Virus record (IMG/VR): IMGVR_UViG_3300009103_000014
Coordinates: 1-64,000 of that record
Strand: one strand, 5' to 3'
From: a virus
DNA length: 64,000 nt
In this document: positions 5,121-14,733 of the stretch, one piece after another
Layout of the letters: every line of letters begins with the position of its first letter
Position numbering within the stretch: position 1 is the stretch's first letter
Program-made: the position numbers and the translations under genes
The notes under the pieces: model-generated
Seen by the model: only the letters and a program-made list of their open reading frames with translations
Told to the model about the DNA's origin: nothing
Databases searched by the model: none

Positions 5121-5453
5121 TTATTTTCTTTTGTTGAGGGCTCGTTTAGCCATATCATCTACTTTTTTATCAGGATCAATTTTTGGCTCTTCAGCATCTA
5201 TAGTGTCGTTGTCTATTTCGTCGGGGGATTTTAGTATAATGTTGTCTTGATTTATATCAGCAATAAGATTTTGTAATTGTGGATTTTCGTCGTATGCTTT
5301 TTTAAGTGCTTGATAGCTTAATGGTAAGCCCATTTTATGACCCATAGCAACAAAGGCCTTCATAGGCATTTCTTTGTTATCACCATCTATTTTATTAGCT
5401 AAAAAAGTTAATAATGAAGATAACTTGGTAGGAGCAAACTCATCGAGTCGCAT
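5121..5453 (-). CDS. Conserved phage protein, unknown function
   Basis: A 110-residue protein beginning MRLDEFAPTKLSSLL, ending in an acidic, Lys-rich tail (EEPKIDPDKK...). The ATG at 5453 is chosen because a SD (GAGAGGA) lies 8 bases upstream and it follows the previous stop by one base (TAAAATG). The open frame upstream of it overlaps the preceding gene and has no SD. Translationally coupled to the 360-residue gene. Probably a small virion or head-associated protein by context; no motif recognised. Confidence 0.7.
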   Translation of the reverse strand: MRLDEFAPTKLSSLLTFLANKIDGDNKEMPMKAFVAMGHKMGLPLSYQALKKAYDENPQLQNLIADINQDNIILKSPDEIDNDTIDAEEPKIDPDKKVDDMAKRALNKRK

Positions 5454-5454
5454 T

Positions 5455-6537
5455 TTAGCGTTCCTCTCTATCCAGTCCTGGTTCGCCTTCTGTTCCACCT
5501 TCTTCTGAATCTAAATCCATTACAGGCATTTCAGCATCAGCACCATCTACGTCTACGTCTAAATCACCTGCTGGTTCCATAGCATCGGCACCTTCTGGTT
5601 CTGGACCTAAGTCAATTCCTGATTCTTCACCAGTTAATAATCTACTAGCACTATCCATACCTGATCTTGCTGATTCAACTGAACTTAAACAACTATCAAG
5701 TGTACCTTTTGCCGCATTGGCAAAAGCATCTGCTTTATCTTGACCCATCTCATCTCTAATAGCATCTACTAATGGTGGTAGGTTTTCGTTTTGTAATTCA
5801 CCTATTTGTTCTTGCATTTTTTGAAGTTGGTCAACCATATCTTTAGCGGCTAATACTAATTCTGCTGACTCCATTTCACCTTCTCTAAGAGTGCCTTCTT
5901 TAATTTTTAGCATTCTTTTACTTCTTTTATCTAACTGTTGCATTATTCTTGTGTTAGAAATACTTGCTGACATTACATTTTCAAGCAAGTCTAATAAAGG
6001 CATTAAACCTTCCATAAAGTTTGCCGGTACAGCCTTGCCTGCTCTAGCATACTCTAAAGCTCTTTTGGCTTTAACATAATTTTGAGAACCTACTAGCAAC
6101 CTTAGGGCCTGTGTTGCTGTAGCATTATCGCCAAATGCTTCTTTAACTGATTCTTTTTTATCTTTTAAATTTGGGTGAGCTTCATATCTAGGATCGCCTG
6201 CTTTGTATCTTTGCCATGCTGGAGAATTTGTTTTTCTATCAGCATCAGTTACTTGCATTTTACGTCCTGGTATATCGTGTTCTTTAATTAGTTTTTGTTC
6301 AGTAAGCCATTTTTCTAATGCTTCAACAGTCATTATAGCATTAAAGTACTTGGCACTTCCTTTAGAATCAGCACCATTAAGTTTAAATGACTGTACATCA
6401 TTTCGGGTGCTTTCTAATATATCTAAAGCTAACTGTGGCGTTAACTTAGAAAAATCAATTTCATGATTAAATGTTTTTTTAAGTTGCTTGTTCACTGCTG
6501 AACTAGTAACTCTTTTTTCAATTTCACTCAAATTCAT
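5455..6537 (-). CDS. Conserved marine T4-like phage protein, probable virion component
   Basis: A 360-residue, mostly helical protein. Residues 1-70 are basic and amphipathic, about 110-310 are coiled-coil-prone, and the last 50 residues are strongly acidic with Asp/Glu/Pro repeats. There is no signal peptide or enzyme motif. A late promoter element sits about 30 bases upstream, consistent with a structural or assembly role. The ESVKEAF stretch recurs in the 7835-8713 product (ESVKEG, GSVKEA), hinting at a shared segment among these late proteins. Function unknown. Confidence 0.75.
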   Translation of the reverse strand: MNLSEIEKRVTSSAVNKQLKKTFNHEIDFSKLTPQLALDILESTRNDVQSFKLNGADSKGSAKYFNAIMTVEALEKWLTEQKLIKEHDIPGRKMQVTDADRKTNSPAWQRYKAGDPRYEAHPNLKDKKESVKEAFGDNATATQALRLLVGSQNYVKAKRALEYARAGKAVPANFMEGLMPLLDLLENVMSASISNTRIMQQLDKRSKRMLKIKEGTLREGEMESAELVLAAKDMVDQLQKMQEQIGELQNENLPPLVDAIRDEMGQDKADAFANAAKGTLDSCLSSVESARSGMDSASRLLTGEESGIDLGPEPEGADAMEPAGDLDVDVDGADAEMPVMDLDSEEGGTEGEPGLDREER

Positions 6538-6971: not shown

Positions 6972-7164
6972 AGAGCACATCATCACCTATTCGTTTACGC
7001 CAAAACACACTTTTACTTACCAAACGGTTAACTGTAGCGATGTGTTCTTGTTTTAATGAAGATCTAAGTATTTGACCTTCTGGTGAATTCTCTACGATTT
7101 TTATTAATTCAATTTCGTCCGTTGAAATCCAGACTCTAACTGTTGGTGCTATCTTGTGAAACAT
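6943..7164 (-). CDS. Small conserved phage protein
   Basis: A 73-residue protein (MFHKIAPTVRVWISTDEIELI...), basic at the C-terminus. Its predicted helix-turn pattern (EGQILRSSLKQEHIATVNRLVSKSV) is compatible with a small DNA- or protein-binding fold, but no family is recognised. Its ATG shares bases with the stop of the P-loop kinase frame and its end overlaps the next gene, so it belongs to the same transcript. Confidence 0.65.
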   Translation of the reverse strand: MFHKIAPTVRVWISTDEIELIKIVENSPEGQILRSSLKQEHIATVNRLVSKSVFWRKRIGDDVLYGRKPTYRK

Positions 7165-7843
7165 TATTTCTTATTTTTAGCTATCCAATCTTTTGCTATT
7201 GGATTACGAGGCTCTTGATTTAAAAACTGTCTAATTTTACCTTCTACGTTTTTAAATCCTTCTGCTCTTTCGGGGTCTTCTAACCCGCCTGAATTATCTA
7301 CAACAAGAAAACGTTCAGGTGTGAACAACTGCTGAAACTTCATCATATTTTCTTGTACTCTTCTCCACATTTTTTCTACTTCTTCAGGTTTGAGTGTTCT
7401 TCCGGGTCTATCTAAATTTCTTTGTTGTGCTACGGCTAATTTAGTATTAACATATAACATCATTGTGCCGTAACCTAAGTCGGTCATTTCTTTTCTTATT
7501 TTTGCTGTTTTTTCTAAATCTCTACCTGTACCGTCAATTACTACACCTAACTTACCATCTAACCACCAGCCTTTTTGTTTTGCTAATAGTTCTTTACCTT
7601 GATCTCTAGTTGCTTGACCGGCTGGACTATAAATTTGCTCTGGATCAGTAACGTCCATGCCCTTTTTTCTCATTAAAAATTCAAACATATTATCTGAATC
7701 AGCAAACTTTAATCCAAACCCTTGTAATATTTTTTTTGCTACATATGATTTCCCAGAACCGGGACCACCAGCCATAAAAATCGCTTTGAAAATATGTTTA
7801 TCGTTGGGACCTTCTTCTAGATCAAGACCGGTATCTACAAGTC
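7164..7843 (-). CDS. P-loop kinase (zeta-toxin/AAA-like) domain, probably made by -1 frameshift
   Basis: Nucleotide-binding P-loop protein with Walker A GGPGSGKS, a D-x-D-x motif (ADSDN), a VVIDGTGRD Walker-B-like strand and an arginine-rich lid (about QQRNLDRPGR), resembling zeta-toxin/polynucleotide-kinase folds. The only ATG (7775) sits two codons before the Walker A and would delete the first beta strand. The same frame is open and looks coding for about 23 further codons upstream (...DTGLDLEEGPNDK, then HIFKAIF), with no ATG, GTG or TTG. The frame begins at an A9 tract at the end of the 292-residue gene, so synthesis as a C-terminal extension of that protein by -1 frameshifting is the best reading. 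The end coordinate given marks that junction. Confidence 0.75.
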
Positions 7844-8713
7844 TTTTTTTTTGACAGACTCAATCTGTTTGTTGTATTTTGCTCTAATCAAACTTGGCTT
7901 TAATCCAAGTTCCCTAGTCCTTATATCATCAACAGCATTTTGAATTCTATATGCTATCTCATTTTTATCAATGCCTTTGATTTCTTCACTTTTAAATAAC
8001 ATCTCTACATACTCGTCAATAGTGTTTAAGTACCCTTCTATGTTACCGCCAGCTTCTTTTACAGAGCCTTCTGAAAATGATCCTGTGTCACCTTCAAGTC
8101 TTGCTTTAAATTCTGCTAGGTGTCCAACAAGATCTTCTACGTTCTCGTCATATTCTTCATTGTTAAAATCAACTAGTTCTCTATAAAGCTCGTCTGTAAG
8201 TCGATGTATTTTATCTACATCATTTACGCCTTCTTTAACTGATTCTTCTTTTGGTATATAAGCATCTGCTGGAACAATCTTTTTTGCTCTTTCTAATACG
8301 TCTTGTAAAAGTTTAACACCTTTGTCCATAGTAACTATTTGATCGTGTAAGTCACCAGCACCTGTTCCTCTTGAGTCAATTTTACTTAATAGATCAACAT
8401 CTTGTTTGATAGTTTGTAAATGACTTTCTAATTCTTCTAAACGGTGATGTTTGTAACCGTCGAATTTATCTTCGTGTACTTTTACTTGCTGTCCTGGTTT
8501 AAGTTTTTTACCTACGTTAGGGCCTTTTTTCTTATTTAAATTAATAGATGTTTGACCCATAGATGTACTTACATCAATACCAGTATCTTTATCAGTATCT
8601 AATTCTATTTTTTGTCCTGGTGACGTTTGTATTGTAAACTTTTTACCGTCAGGAGAAACTTTAGTAATTTTTCCTTTTTCTGGCTCTACTTCTAATAATT
8701 TAAACCAACTCAT
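7835..8713 (-). CDS. Conserved phage protein; N-terminal part of probable frameshift fusion with P-loop kinase
   Basis: A 292-residue protein. The N-terminus MSWFKLLEVEPEKGKITKV is followed by a small beta-barrel-like domain (residues 10-80, with VSPDGKKFTIQTSPGQKIEL, KOW/OB-like), then long helical, coiled-coil-prone regions rich in Glu/Lys/Asp. The frame terminates at TAG 7835-7837, three codons after AAA AAA AAA. The kinase frame is -1 relative to it and continues directly. Late context; possibly a virion-associated protein. Its start overlaps the end of a 47-codon zinc-ribbon gene, which suggests translational coupling. Confidence 0.75.
   Translation of the reverse strand: MSWFKLLEVEPEKGKITKVSPDGKKFTIQTSPGQKIELDTDKDTGIDVSTSMGQTSINLNKKKGPNVGKKLKPGQQVKVHEDKFDGYKHHRLEELESHLQTIKQDVDLLSKIDSRGTGAGDLHDQIVTMDKGVKLLQDVLERAKKIVPADAYIPKEESVKEGVNDVDKIHRLTDELYRELVDFNNEEYDENVEDLVGHLAEFKARLEGDTGSFSEGSVKEAGGNIEGYLNTIDEYVEMLFKSEEIKGIDKNEIAYRIQNAVDDIRTRELGLKPSLIRAKYNKQIESVKKKDL
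7844..7852 (-). other. A9 slippery tract, candidate -1 ribosomal frameshift site
   Basis: Nine A residues on the minus strand, read in the upstream frame as GTC AAA AAA AAA GAC. Sliding back one base on A-AAA-AAA gives AGA CTT GTA GAT and enters the kinase frame. Short complementary arms (AAGAC with GTCTT; TAGAT with ATCTA) lie just downstream and could form a weak stimulatory hairpin. Confidence 0.65.
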
Positions 8714-8843
8714 TTTTTTCTTGTTTCCTATAATGCTTACAAACTTCTATTTCTATTGTTTTATTATCACCATCTTGAAATTCTTTAATTAAAGGACTAT
8801 CATGTTTTTCATACCCGCAATTTTCACAATATTCTTTTATCAT
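8700..8843 (-). CDS. 47-residue zinc-ribbon-like protein
   Basis: Short ORF too small for routine calling: MIKEYCENCGYEKHDS then a hydrophilic middle, then VCKHYRK. Cys6-x2-Cys9 and Cys35-x-His37 form a plausible single zinc knuckle. Its ATG overlaps the upstream stop as TAATG and its 3' end overlaps the next gene by 14 bases, the compact junction style seen throughout this phage. This supports real translation. Function unknown; possibly nucleic-acid or protein binding. Confidence 0.65.
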   Translation of the reverse strand: MIKEYCENCGYEKHDSPLIKEFQDGDNKTIEIEVCKHYRKQEKNELV

Positions 8844-9145
8844 TACTTCTTACCCGAAAATTTTCTTGAACCCTTTGCTCTATTTAGTGCTTGAACCCTT
8901 CTTGAAGCTGGGTTAATACGCTTTGTTCTGTTTGCTTTTCTAACATTTCGTCTAGCAAATCTGGCTTTAGTAATAGCTAACTTAATACGTTTTTGAATAT
9001 TAGGTGCTTTATAACATGAAGCCGGCGAAGCAACAATCTTACCTTTTAATCTTCCTGCTGAACAACGAAATTTTCGTACGACTTTCGTCCCTGAACGGGC
9101 CCATGCCATAGTTGCTTCATTTGATGTAATTTCGTTGACTAGCAT
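8843..9145 (-). CDS. Highly basic conserved phage protein
   Basis: A 100-residue, Arg/Lys-rich protein (pI certainly very high). Residues 13-40 (MAWARSGTKVVRKFRCSAG...) and the C-terminal NPASRRVQALNRAKGSRK stretch are of a type recurrent in T4-like marine phages. One Cys pair (C28, C44). It could be a DNA-condensing or capsid-internal protein; this is inference from charge only. The start could be ATG 9145 or the internal ATG before AWARSG (9109). Confidence 0.75.
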   Translation of the reverse strand: MLVNEITSNEATMAWARSGTKVVRKFRCSAGRLKGKIVASPASCYKAPNIQKRIKLAITKARFARRNVRKANRTKRINPASRRVQALNRAKGSRKFSGKK

Positions 9146-12798: not shown

Positions 12799-14055
12799 TT
12801 AATCCCAGTTTTTCACAGCGTTAAAATTCGCCGCATTAAATTCTAATCTATCATTAAGTTTTACAGCACCATCTTCAATACCAAATGCTACAAAACCTTC
12901 TGGGTTAGTAACTACATAACCCATATCTGTTTTTAAAAACGTACCAACACTTTGTTCAATACGTTGTAATTTATGTAATAACTTTAATTTAATCTGTATA
13001 ATTTGTTTATATACAGCCATTACTGCTAATAAACTATTTAAGTTATCTTCTACAAATAATTCTAATTCAGTAGCACGAGCTATTCTATTTTGTGCCGCGG
13101 TGCCTTCTGGACCACTTTTTAAAGCATCAATTTCTTTGTCCATTTTTTCTTTAAAATAAACAACAAACTCTTGAACAAACTTTGTGGGCTCTCCAACACT
13201 TTGACCTGATTTAATTTTATGATTAATAAATGGTTTAACCCATTTAGCTAACTCAGGTTGCTGTAAAAATGTATTAAATCTTCCCTCGTCAGTTTTACCT
13301 AGTGTGGTTTTAGCTTGTTCAATTGCTTGAGCTATAACTTTATTATCAGCTTTACTTAAGGTTGCTTTTCCGCCTACGTCTTTATAGTAAGCATCATCAA
13401 ACCAAACATCTTTAGTTTGTGTTAAGCCACCCATATTAACACCAAATTCTGCTTTCATATCAGCTAATGTTTCACCTGTATATGTTGTGTGAAATACTAT
13501 ACCTATTTTAGCCGCTTTAATTCTTTTACCAATGTCACTGTCAACAGGTACTGAATATGTAATAGTATTAGGTGTAAATGTATAACACTCTTCTTTACCT
13601 ATTGTTTCAGTTTTAACATCTTCAGATGTAAACATTAGATCACCCTGTAAAACACCTTGTATGCCTAGCTTTCTTAAAGTTACTAATGCTACTTGAAGTT
13701 TGGCGTTAAGGCCTGCTCCAGGATACCAATTATTAATTTGTGCTTTAGTTTTAGCCGCTTTATTTTCTGTTTTACCAAATACTGCTTTAGTACCAACAAA
13801 AAACTTTCCATCAGCTGGATCAGTTCCACAAATAATCGCAGGAGCACCGTCCCACTTAACTGTTATTTTATTTTGTCCTTCACCACCCGTGTTAAGCATA
13901 TCTCTAATAGCATTAATATATTTTAATGCCGAAATAGCTCCTTTATAACCGTCATTTAATATTAAATCTTCTAAATGTTCTAAATGAGTGTTTTTCTCAG
14001 AGGCTTCGAATAAAGTTTGCCAGTTACGTGGCTTGAGTACTTCTGTTATTAACAT
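12799..14055 (-). CDS. DUF6267-type protein with nucleotidyltransferase (DNA/RNA ligase)-like motifs
   Basis: A 418-residue protein of a family found in marine phages and generally left unannotated. I see an ordered set of ligase-superfamily-like motifs: KWDG at 67-70 (motif I, lysine nucleotidylation), FVGTKAVFGK at 86-95, LQGDLMF at 136-142 (motif III-like), GIVFHTTYTG at 185-194 (IIIa-like), and near the C-terminus PEGFVA with E386 (motif IV) and VKL at 398-400 (motif V). A helical insertion of about 190 residues separates IIIa from IV. It might adenylylate itself or a nucleic acid end, but the assignment is motif-based. SD GGAAAG upstream. Confidence 0.7.
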   Translation of the reverse strand: MLITEVLKPRNWQTLFEASEKNTHLEHLEDLILNDGYKGAISALKYINAIRDMLNTGGEGQNKITVKWDGAPAIICGTDPADGKFFVGTKAVFGKTENKAAKTKAQINNWYPGAGLNAKLQVALVTLRKLGIQGVLQGDLMFTSEDVKTETIGKEECYTFTPNTITYSVPVDSDIGKRIKAAKIGIVFHTTYTGETLADMKAEFGVNMGGLTQTKDVWFDDAYYKDVGGKATLSKADNKVIAQAIEQAKTTLGKTDEGRFNTFLQQPELAKWVKPFINHKIKSGQSVGEPTKFVQEFVVYFKEKMDKEIDALKSGPEGTAAQNRIARATELELFVEDNLNSLLAVMAVYKQIIQIKLKLLHKLQRIEQSVGTFLKTDMGYVVTNPEGFVAFGIEDGAVKLNDRLEFNAANFNAVKNWD

Positions 14056-14058
14056 ATT

Positions 14059-14733
14059 TTACTTTCCTACTAGTTCTAACTTACTTGTTGTAAGTGCCCA
14101 TGGAGTACCATTTGGAACTGTTACTTGAGTATTGCCTTTTTTAACACCAACGTCTGTGTCTTTTGTAACGGTACCAGTAATTTGTTTACCTTTTGCGGAT
14201 GTCCAAGTTACTTTATCACCAGCTTTAAAAGATTTAGCAGGTTGATCAGGTACTTGATTTTGTGCCGCTGACGGATTAACATCTTTATCACCAGCTGGCA
14301 TTTTTTCTGCTACTTCTTTATTAATTGGGCTAGGTAATTTATCTGCTACCTGTTCTAAATATGATTGCATTTCAACAGATGATTTTGGTTTTAATAATAT
14401 AGCTATTACTATTCTTAAAATAGCATTGGCGCCTTTTTTATCAGTTTCAACACCAAACTCTGTTGTAGCTTTTTTTAATGATATTTTAGCTGAACTTGAT
14501 CCATAAAATCTTTCAATCCATGCTTTTAATAAACCATCAGGATTAGTTTTAGCTGTATCTTGATTTTTATCAATTATTTTTTTCCAAGCACCGTAATGAC
14601 GTTTTACCATGTCTATAACGTCACCGATTTGACCGCCTTTACCAGTTAACCCACCGTCTAATTTATAACTTCCTTTTTTATACTTCGGGTCTATAACTGG
14701 AGCTTCTGCTATATCTATCTCGTTAATTCTCAT
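14059..14733 (-). CDS. Conserved phage protein with SH3/KOW-like C-terminus
   Basis: A 224-residue protein. The N-terminus MRINEIDIAEAPVIDP is followed by a helical domain, a Pro/Asp/Gln linker (about 145-165) and a compact beta domain (about 168-224: FKAGDKVTWTSAKGKQITG...) resembling small hypervariable-D/KOW-like barrels. It overlaps the upstream 82-residue gene by 11 bases and lies four bases before the ligase-like gene, so they are probably coupled. Function unknown. Confidence 0.7.
   Translation of the reverse strand: MRINEIDIAEAPVIDPKYKKGSYKLDGGLTGKGGQIGDVIDMVKRHYGAWKKIIDKNQDTAKTNPDGLLKAWIERFYGSSSAKISLKKATTEFGVETDKKGANAILRIVIAILLKPKSSVEMQSYLEQVADKLPSPINKEVAEKMPAGDKDVNPSAAQNQVPDQPAKSFKAGDKVTWTSAKGKQITGTVTKDTDVGVKKGNTQVTVPNGTPWALTTSKLELVGK

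What the first reader, a model, noticed from the sequence alone, without database searches (positions are those of the whole stretch)
7164..8713. Probable programmed -1 frameshift joining a conserved protein to a P-loop kinase
The kinase frame has its first ATG two codons before the Walker A, which would remove the first beta strand. The frame remains open and coding-like upstream (GLDLEEGPNDK then HIFKAIF) with no ATG, GTG or TTG until it meets an A9 tract at 7844-7852 at the very end of the 292-residue gene. In that gene the tract reads AAA AAA AAA GAC TTG TAG; a -1 slip on A-AAA-AAA enters the kinase frame and would make a single protein of about 515 residues, while unshifted ribosomes stop three codons later. 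The compact alternative product and the slippery site fit known -1 frameshift architecture. A homopolymer assembly error would produce the same picture and must be excluded.
Basis: partly seen in the sequence, partly recalled or inferred. Interest (0 to 1): 0.82.

Follow-up and report, generated by a model that had tools for sequence, protein, structure and literature searches.

The report
Fused phage kinase gene, frame broken
In related marine phages this is one ordinary continuous gene fusing a variable leader region to a small kinase, and this one contig lacks a single base at the junction, so the apparent "programmed frameshift" is most likely a sequencing error or a recent mutation.

Summary
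The described layout is real. A 292-aa ORF (8713-7835, minus strand) ends just past an A9 tract (7852-7844). A P-loop kinase frame overlaps it at -1 and has no usable start; its only ATG lies inside the first beta strand. The inference that the two parts form one protein is right, but the programmed frameshift is not supported. Eight other IMG/VR contigs (about six distinct sequences, kinase 69-80% identical) encode both parts in ONE uninterrupted frame. They carry the same C-A9-GA (CAA AAA AAA AGA, Q-K-K-R). The window has one base fewer than all of them immediately before C-A9. More distant relatives have a stand-alone kinase gene with a normal start about 20-25 codons before the Walker A. 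No relative found needs a frameshift. This is the only coding-strand frame break in the 80-kb record against relatives. No downstream RNA structure was found. Linker and kinase are under strong purifying selection, so the break is very recent, an error, or (less likely) bypassed. The kinase belongs to the Zeta_toxin/AAA_33 clan; a conserved [LIVM]-x-E|G before it suggests (unproven) a head-packaged, protease-trimmed enzyme. Slippage at A9 cannot be excluded.

The parts
7835..8713 (-). N-terminal part of the fusion gene as it reads in this contig (292 aa: MSWFKLLE... modules ...ESVKKKDL, then TAG)
7164..7859 (-). kinase frame, open stop to stop: linker plus P-loop kinase, ending NKK*
7844..7852 (-). 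A9 tract (T9 on + strand); same length in all eight fused relatives; only A/T run >=9 in the record
7853..7855 (-). GTC just before the A9; relatives have four bases here, so the frame break lies here
   Evidence: DNA alignment A2
7835..7837 (-). TAG reached in the unshifted frame (not a stop in the relatives' reading)
7770..7787 (-). kinase strand 1 (KAIFMA); contains the only ATG of the frame (7775-7773)
   Evidence: AlphaFold model
7746..7769 (-). Walker A motif GGPGSGKS
   Evidence: Zeta_toxin and AAA_33
7812..7820 (-). LEE|G: putative prohead-protease site directly before the kinase domain (conserved as [LIVM]-x-E|G)
   Evidence: processing is inferred
8231..8242 (-). SVKE|G: putative processing site between modules of the N-terminal part
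   Evidence: inferred
8054..8065 (-). SVKE|A: putative processing site between modules of the N-terminal part
   Evidence: inferred

Best explanation
In this clade of T4-like marine myoviruses the region is one gene read in one frame: a variable, modular N-terminal part fused to a P-loop kinase. In this contig a single base is missing immediately before an A9 tract, which splits the gene. The split is not programmed; it is most likely a sequencing or assembly error, or else a very recent real mutation. Shown: in-frame fusion in relatives, one-base difference, purifying selection on linker and kinase. Inferred: error versus mutation. Also inferred from motifs: the protein is packaged in the head and cut by the gp21-type prohead protease at [LIVM]-x-E|[AG] sites, releasing the kinase domain beginning at GPNDKHIFK.
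For: Eight IMG/VR contigs (L002, L003, L004, L005, L006, L014, L027, L030) read through C-A9-GA in one ORF. The DNA alignment shows one base fewer in the window just before C-A9, with A9 equal in all. Against 1024 ORFs from six related contigs, this is the only coding-strand frame break in the record, with 52.8 of 64 kb and 15.0 of 16.4 kb covered. Linker dN/dS is about 0.01-0.10 and kinase dN/dS 0.13-0.25 between window and relatives. GTC is a rare Val codon here (3.9% of Val; GTT 47%), which fits loss of a base from GTTC or GTCC. There is no RNA structure. Four further, independently fused kinases (L081/L091, L090, L099, L102) are also in frame. For the packaging inference: CTS-like leaders, gp21 and gp23 in relative G003, gp23 with ...YLKE|AATAG in the matching place, and the T4 rule of cleavage after L/I-x-E (PMC9026906).
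Against: No raw reads and no second copy of the same strain across the junction: the 100%-identical contig L012 stops at 8283, short of the site. A compensated old deletion would leave the same selection pattern. A9 is a known hot spot for transcriptional slippage in bacteria (PMC5009743), so some full-length product could be made even from this sequence. The lost base lies next to the A run, not in it, which is less typical of a pure homopolymer error. The protease and packaging inference rests on motifs only.
Confidence: 0.85

Rival explanations
1. The single-base loss is real and recent in this phage population: the fusion is truncated and the kinase lost, or made only in traces. This is a polymorphic pseudogene (one of the two forms covered by the best explanation, stated apart).
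For: Only one frame break in an otherwise clean 80-kb record, so the contig is not error-ridden. The base loss is not inside the homopolymer. Phage accessory genes are often disrupted (general knowledge).
Against: The kinase and linker show no sign of decay. No second contig shows the same break.
Confidence: 0.3
2. The break is real and bypassed: -1 ribosomal slippage on A_AAA_AAA, or RNA polymerase slippage on A9, makes both the 292-aa product and the ~515-aa fusion.
For: The geometry is right. Runs of 9 A or T slip efficiently during bacterial transcription in vivo (PMC5009743). A9 is kept in all members and is rare genome-wide. Strong purifying selection continues past the break.
Against: No relative uses a shift. 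There is no downstream structure and no evident Shine-Dalgarno-like stimulator upstream by eye. A_AAA_AAA is a weaker ribosomal site than A_AAA_AAG. Invariance of the four Q-K-K-R codons is unremarkable beside other K/Q/R codons (7/15, 6/8 and 4/12 invariant).
Confidence: 0.1
3. Two separate genes: the kinase starts on its own at ATG 7775 or at a non-standard codon.
For: Stand-alone kinase genes exist in more distant relatives.
Against: Those starts lie about 20-25 codons before the Walker A and carry a leader absent here. ATG 7775 removes most of strand 1. No ATG, GTG or TTG lies upstream in frame. All close relatives are fused.
Confidence: 0.03

Closest known systems
Fused leader-kinase genes of uncultivated marine T4-like phages (IMG/VR L002, L003, L005, L006, L014, L030)
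   Same: Same gene, same kind of modules, same junction C-A9-GA, 69-80% kinase identity; linker residues identical in the closest pair
   Different: Single uninterrupted frame in all of them; the N-terminal part varies from about 160 to 385 aa by gain and loss of modules
Stand-alone kinase of Pelagibacter phage HTVC008M (AGE60463) and Methylophilales phage Melnitz (QZI95068), PHROG 2071 'ATPase'
   Same: Same kinase family (38-44% identity), same x-x-E-G then x-x-D-x-x-I-F-K-A start
   Different: Separate gene with its own start and a short leader
Agrobacterium phage Atu_ph07 AUZ94865 (PHROG 12810 is the best family match of this kinase)
   Same: Kinase embedded in frame in a larger protein, preceded by VTEG-VNDKHIFKA
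   Different: Different N- and C-terminal parts
E. coli dnaX -1 frameshift (A_AAA_AAG) and Thermus dnaX slippage (run of 9)
   Same: A-run next to a frame change; two products would be possible
   Different: No conserved frame change in relatives, no stimulators (PMC5009743)
T4 internal proteins and Alt with capsid-targeting propeptides cut by gp21
   Same: Short N-terminal leader ending in L/I-x-E before A or G; relative G003 carries gp21 and gp23
   Different: Packaging and cleavage not shown; homology of the kinase to T4 internal proteins or Alt was not tested

Membership tests
Programmed -1 ribosomal frameshift | Slippery heptamer in the right phase | tested here: met
   A_AAA_AAA in phase, shift enters the kinase frame
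Programmed -1 ribosomal frameshift | Frame change conserved in relatives | tested here: not met
   0 of 8 fused relatives have it; all in frame
Programmed -1 ribosomal frameshift | Stimulatory downstream structure | tested here: not met
   z = +1.05, 177 of 200 shuffles fold at least as well
Programmed -1 ribosomal frameshift | Two products made at a set ratio | not testable with these tools
   needs proteomics or a reporter
Programmed transcriptional slippage | Run of 9 or more A or T at a frame change | tested here: inconclusive
   run present but no frame change in relatives
P-loop kinase, Zeta_toxin/AAA_33 clan | Walker A and profile match over curated cut-off | tested here: met
   Zeta_toxin 5.1e-14 (52.6 bits, cut-off 22.3), AAA_33 7.6e-10 (39.7 bits, cut-off 27)
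P-loop kinase, Zeta_toxin/AAA_33 clan | Fold of that class | tested here: met
   model pLDDT 86; nearest solved folds adenylate and polynucleotide kinases, zeta also listed
Epsilon-zeta toxin system | Kinase paired with an antitoxin; phosphorylates UDP-N-acetylglucosamine sugars | not tested
   no antitoxin noticed beside it; not filed there
T4-type internal head protein | N-terminal targeting leader ending in L/I-x-E | tested here: inconclusive
   motif present in stand-alone kinases and LLE at residues 6-8 here
T4-type internal head protein | Cut by gp21 and found in the mature head | not testable with these tools
   gp21 gene present in relative G003; no proteome at hand

The most novel reading that the evidence does not exclude
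The conserved A9 is a transcriptional or ribosomal slippage site throughout the clade, giving a truncated leader product and the full leader-kinase from one gene. The relatives sit in the fused frame (slippage truncates, since both other frames stop within four codons of the tract), and the window sits in the truncated frame (slippage extends).
Probability: 0.08. Interest if true: 0.6.

Novelty: not a real feature. Interest (0 to 1): 0.17.

Why it matters
It keeps a false case out of the list of programmed frameshifts. The useful by-product is a testable idea: in T4-like marine phages a family of small kinases is regularly preceded by a prohead-protease-like site, either after a short targeting-like leader or inside large fused proteins. 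That would make them enzymes carried in the head and delivered with the DNA.

Tried and rejected
Homopolymer-length change in the A tract: rejected as the simplest reading, because the tract is A9 in the window and in all relatives; an A10 ancestor with a Q-to-K change stays possible but needs two events. Generally poor contig: rejected, no other coding-strand frame break; the two other places listed there are on the strand opposite to intact window ORFs. Second copy of the strain: a linker pattern gave only the eight relatives in IMG/VR and none in GTDB contigs; a kinase profile over GTDB contigs gave none. Relatives of a virus record cannot be drawn by the genome search. Special conservation of A9 codons: not remarkable. 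Genome-wide enrichment of [LIVM]xE[AGS] per protein: no signal for the fusion gene. The N-terminal part has no match in named phages. Literature on capsid targeting in cyanophages: nothing specific found.

Full report
What is there. On the minus strand, a 292-aa ORF (8713-7835) ends ...GAG TCT GTC AAA AAA AAA GAC TTG TAG. A second frame, at -1, is open from 7859 to 7164 and encodes a P-loop kinase. Its only ATG (7775) is two codons before GGPGSGKS. An AlphaFold model of the open frame (39-row alignment, mean pLDDT 86, pTM 0.81) puts strand 1 at residues 24-29, the ATG being residue 28, so an ATG start would destroy strand 1. Residues 1-13 have low confidence, as a flexible linker would. The A9 is the only A/T run of nine or more in the 80,403-base virus record.

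Relatives. Scans of IMG/VR with the kinase, the N-terminal part, a linker DNA pattern and a profile gave eight contigs with the same fusion and many with a kinase alone. In all eight fusions the two parts form one uninterrupted ORF, read ...GTT (or GTC) CAA AAA AAA AGA CTA GTT GAT.... The alignment of the junction shows the A9 unchanged in length, while the window has one base fewer immediately before it. Four other fusion types (L081/L091, L090, L099, L102) and Agrobacterium phage Atu_ph07 also carry the kinase in frame. Stand-alone kinases start about 20-25 codons before the Walker A with an ordinary start. No member found needs a frameshift.

Is the break an error, a mutation, or used? Translated ORFs from six related contigs were compared with the whole record. 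With 52.8 kb of the window and 15.0 kb of the remaining 16.4 kb covered, this was the only coding-strand frame break; the other places listed lie opposite intact window ORFs. The linker and kinase are under strong purifying selection between window and relatives (linker dN/dS 0.01-0.10; kinase 0.13-0.25 at dS about 0.8-1.0). The break is thus recent, artefactual, or bypassed. A bypass is geometrically possible. In bacteria, RNA polymerase slips efficiently on runs of nine A or T, and A_AAA_AAA is a weaker ribosomal site than A_AAA_AAG (PMC5009743). But no structure follows (z = +1.05), and the A9 codons are no more conserved than other Lys, Gln and Arg codons in the gene. GTC is rare among Val codons here (3.9%), which fits a lost base in GTTC or GTCC better than a native GTC AAA. 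The only 100%-identical contig, L012, ends at window position 8283, before the junction. I cannot separate error from recent mutation. My estimate is about 0.55 error, 0.3 real mutation, 0.1 bypass.

What the protein is. The kinase matches Zeta_toxin (5.1e-14) and AAA_33 (7.6e-10) above the curated cut-offs, PHROG 12810 and 2071, and by fold resembles adenylate kinases and bacterial polynucleotide kinases, with zeta also in the list. Its substrate is unknown. The N-terminal part is modular. Members share the first ~80 residues and the last ~75 (GNIxGYLxTIDEYVEMLF...RTRELGLKPS) but differ by whole modules in between; one of the relatives' modules (FGDNATATQALRLLVGSQN...) also occurs in the neighbouring window gene 5455-6537, and the RTRELGLKPS module occurs in other large proteins of other phages.

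How it most likely works (inference). The kinases examined, stand-alone or fused, are preceded by E-G, nearly always as [LIVM]-x-E-G. Stand-alone forms start with a leader such as MKIHDILEQQIEE|G or MRVNEIIGSIEE|G. T4 packages internal proteins through short N-terminal propeptides that gp21 removes after L/I-x-E (PMC9026906). Relative G003 encodes gp21 (Peptidase_S77) and gp23, and its gp23 has YLKE|AATAG at about the place expected for cleavage. In the window the modules of the N-terminal part are also separated by SVKE|G and SVKE|A. I propose that the fusion is a head-packaged precursor cut into modules plus a free kinase. The window's own record holds no gp21 or gp23 because it is a fragment. 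No proteomic evidence was available to me.

Verdict. The fusion is real. The programmed frameshift is not supported and the break is most likely an isolated single-base error or recent mutation.

Noticed in passing
window 5121-5453, 8843-9145, 12799-14055, 14059-14733 (-): Four genes near the fusion start with leader-like MRLDEF, MLVNEI, MLITEV, MRINEIDIAE|A, resembling the stand-alone kinase leaders; 4 of 93 gene starts but 0 of 484 internal Met match the pattern. The pattern was chosen after seeing kinase leaders. 8843-9145 is a very basic 100-aa protein, like an internal head protein.
   Followed up: partly
window 5455-6537 and 7835-8713; L002, L017, L018, L022: Short protein modules (FGDNATATQALRLLVGSQN..., NIAGYLDTIDEYVEMLF...RTRELGLKPS..., HDIGLLKAVARQMEADAHKGDYTAIEELL...) are shuffled between different genes and phages, in places with nearly identical DNA and flanked by SVKE[AG].
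   Followed up: partly
L081 and L017: Proteins with an N-terminal nucleotidyltransferase-like start (IIFGRFNPPHIGH / IIYPGRFHPFHIGH), in L081 fused to the same kinase; resembles a NadR-like two-enzyme layout. By eye only.
   Followed up: no
L012 (IMGVR_UViG_3300008740_000124): A contig 100% identical to the window over 4431 bases ends inside the fusion gene at window position 8283, so it does not cover the junction.
   Followed up: yes
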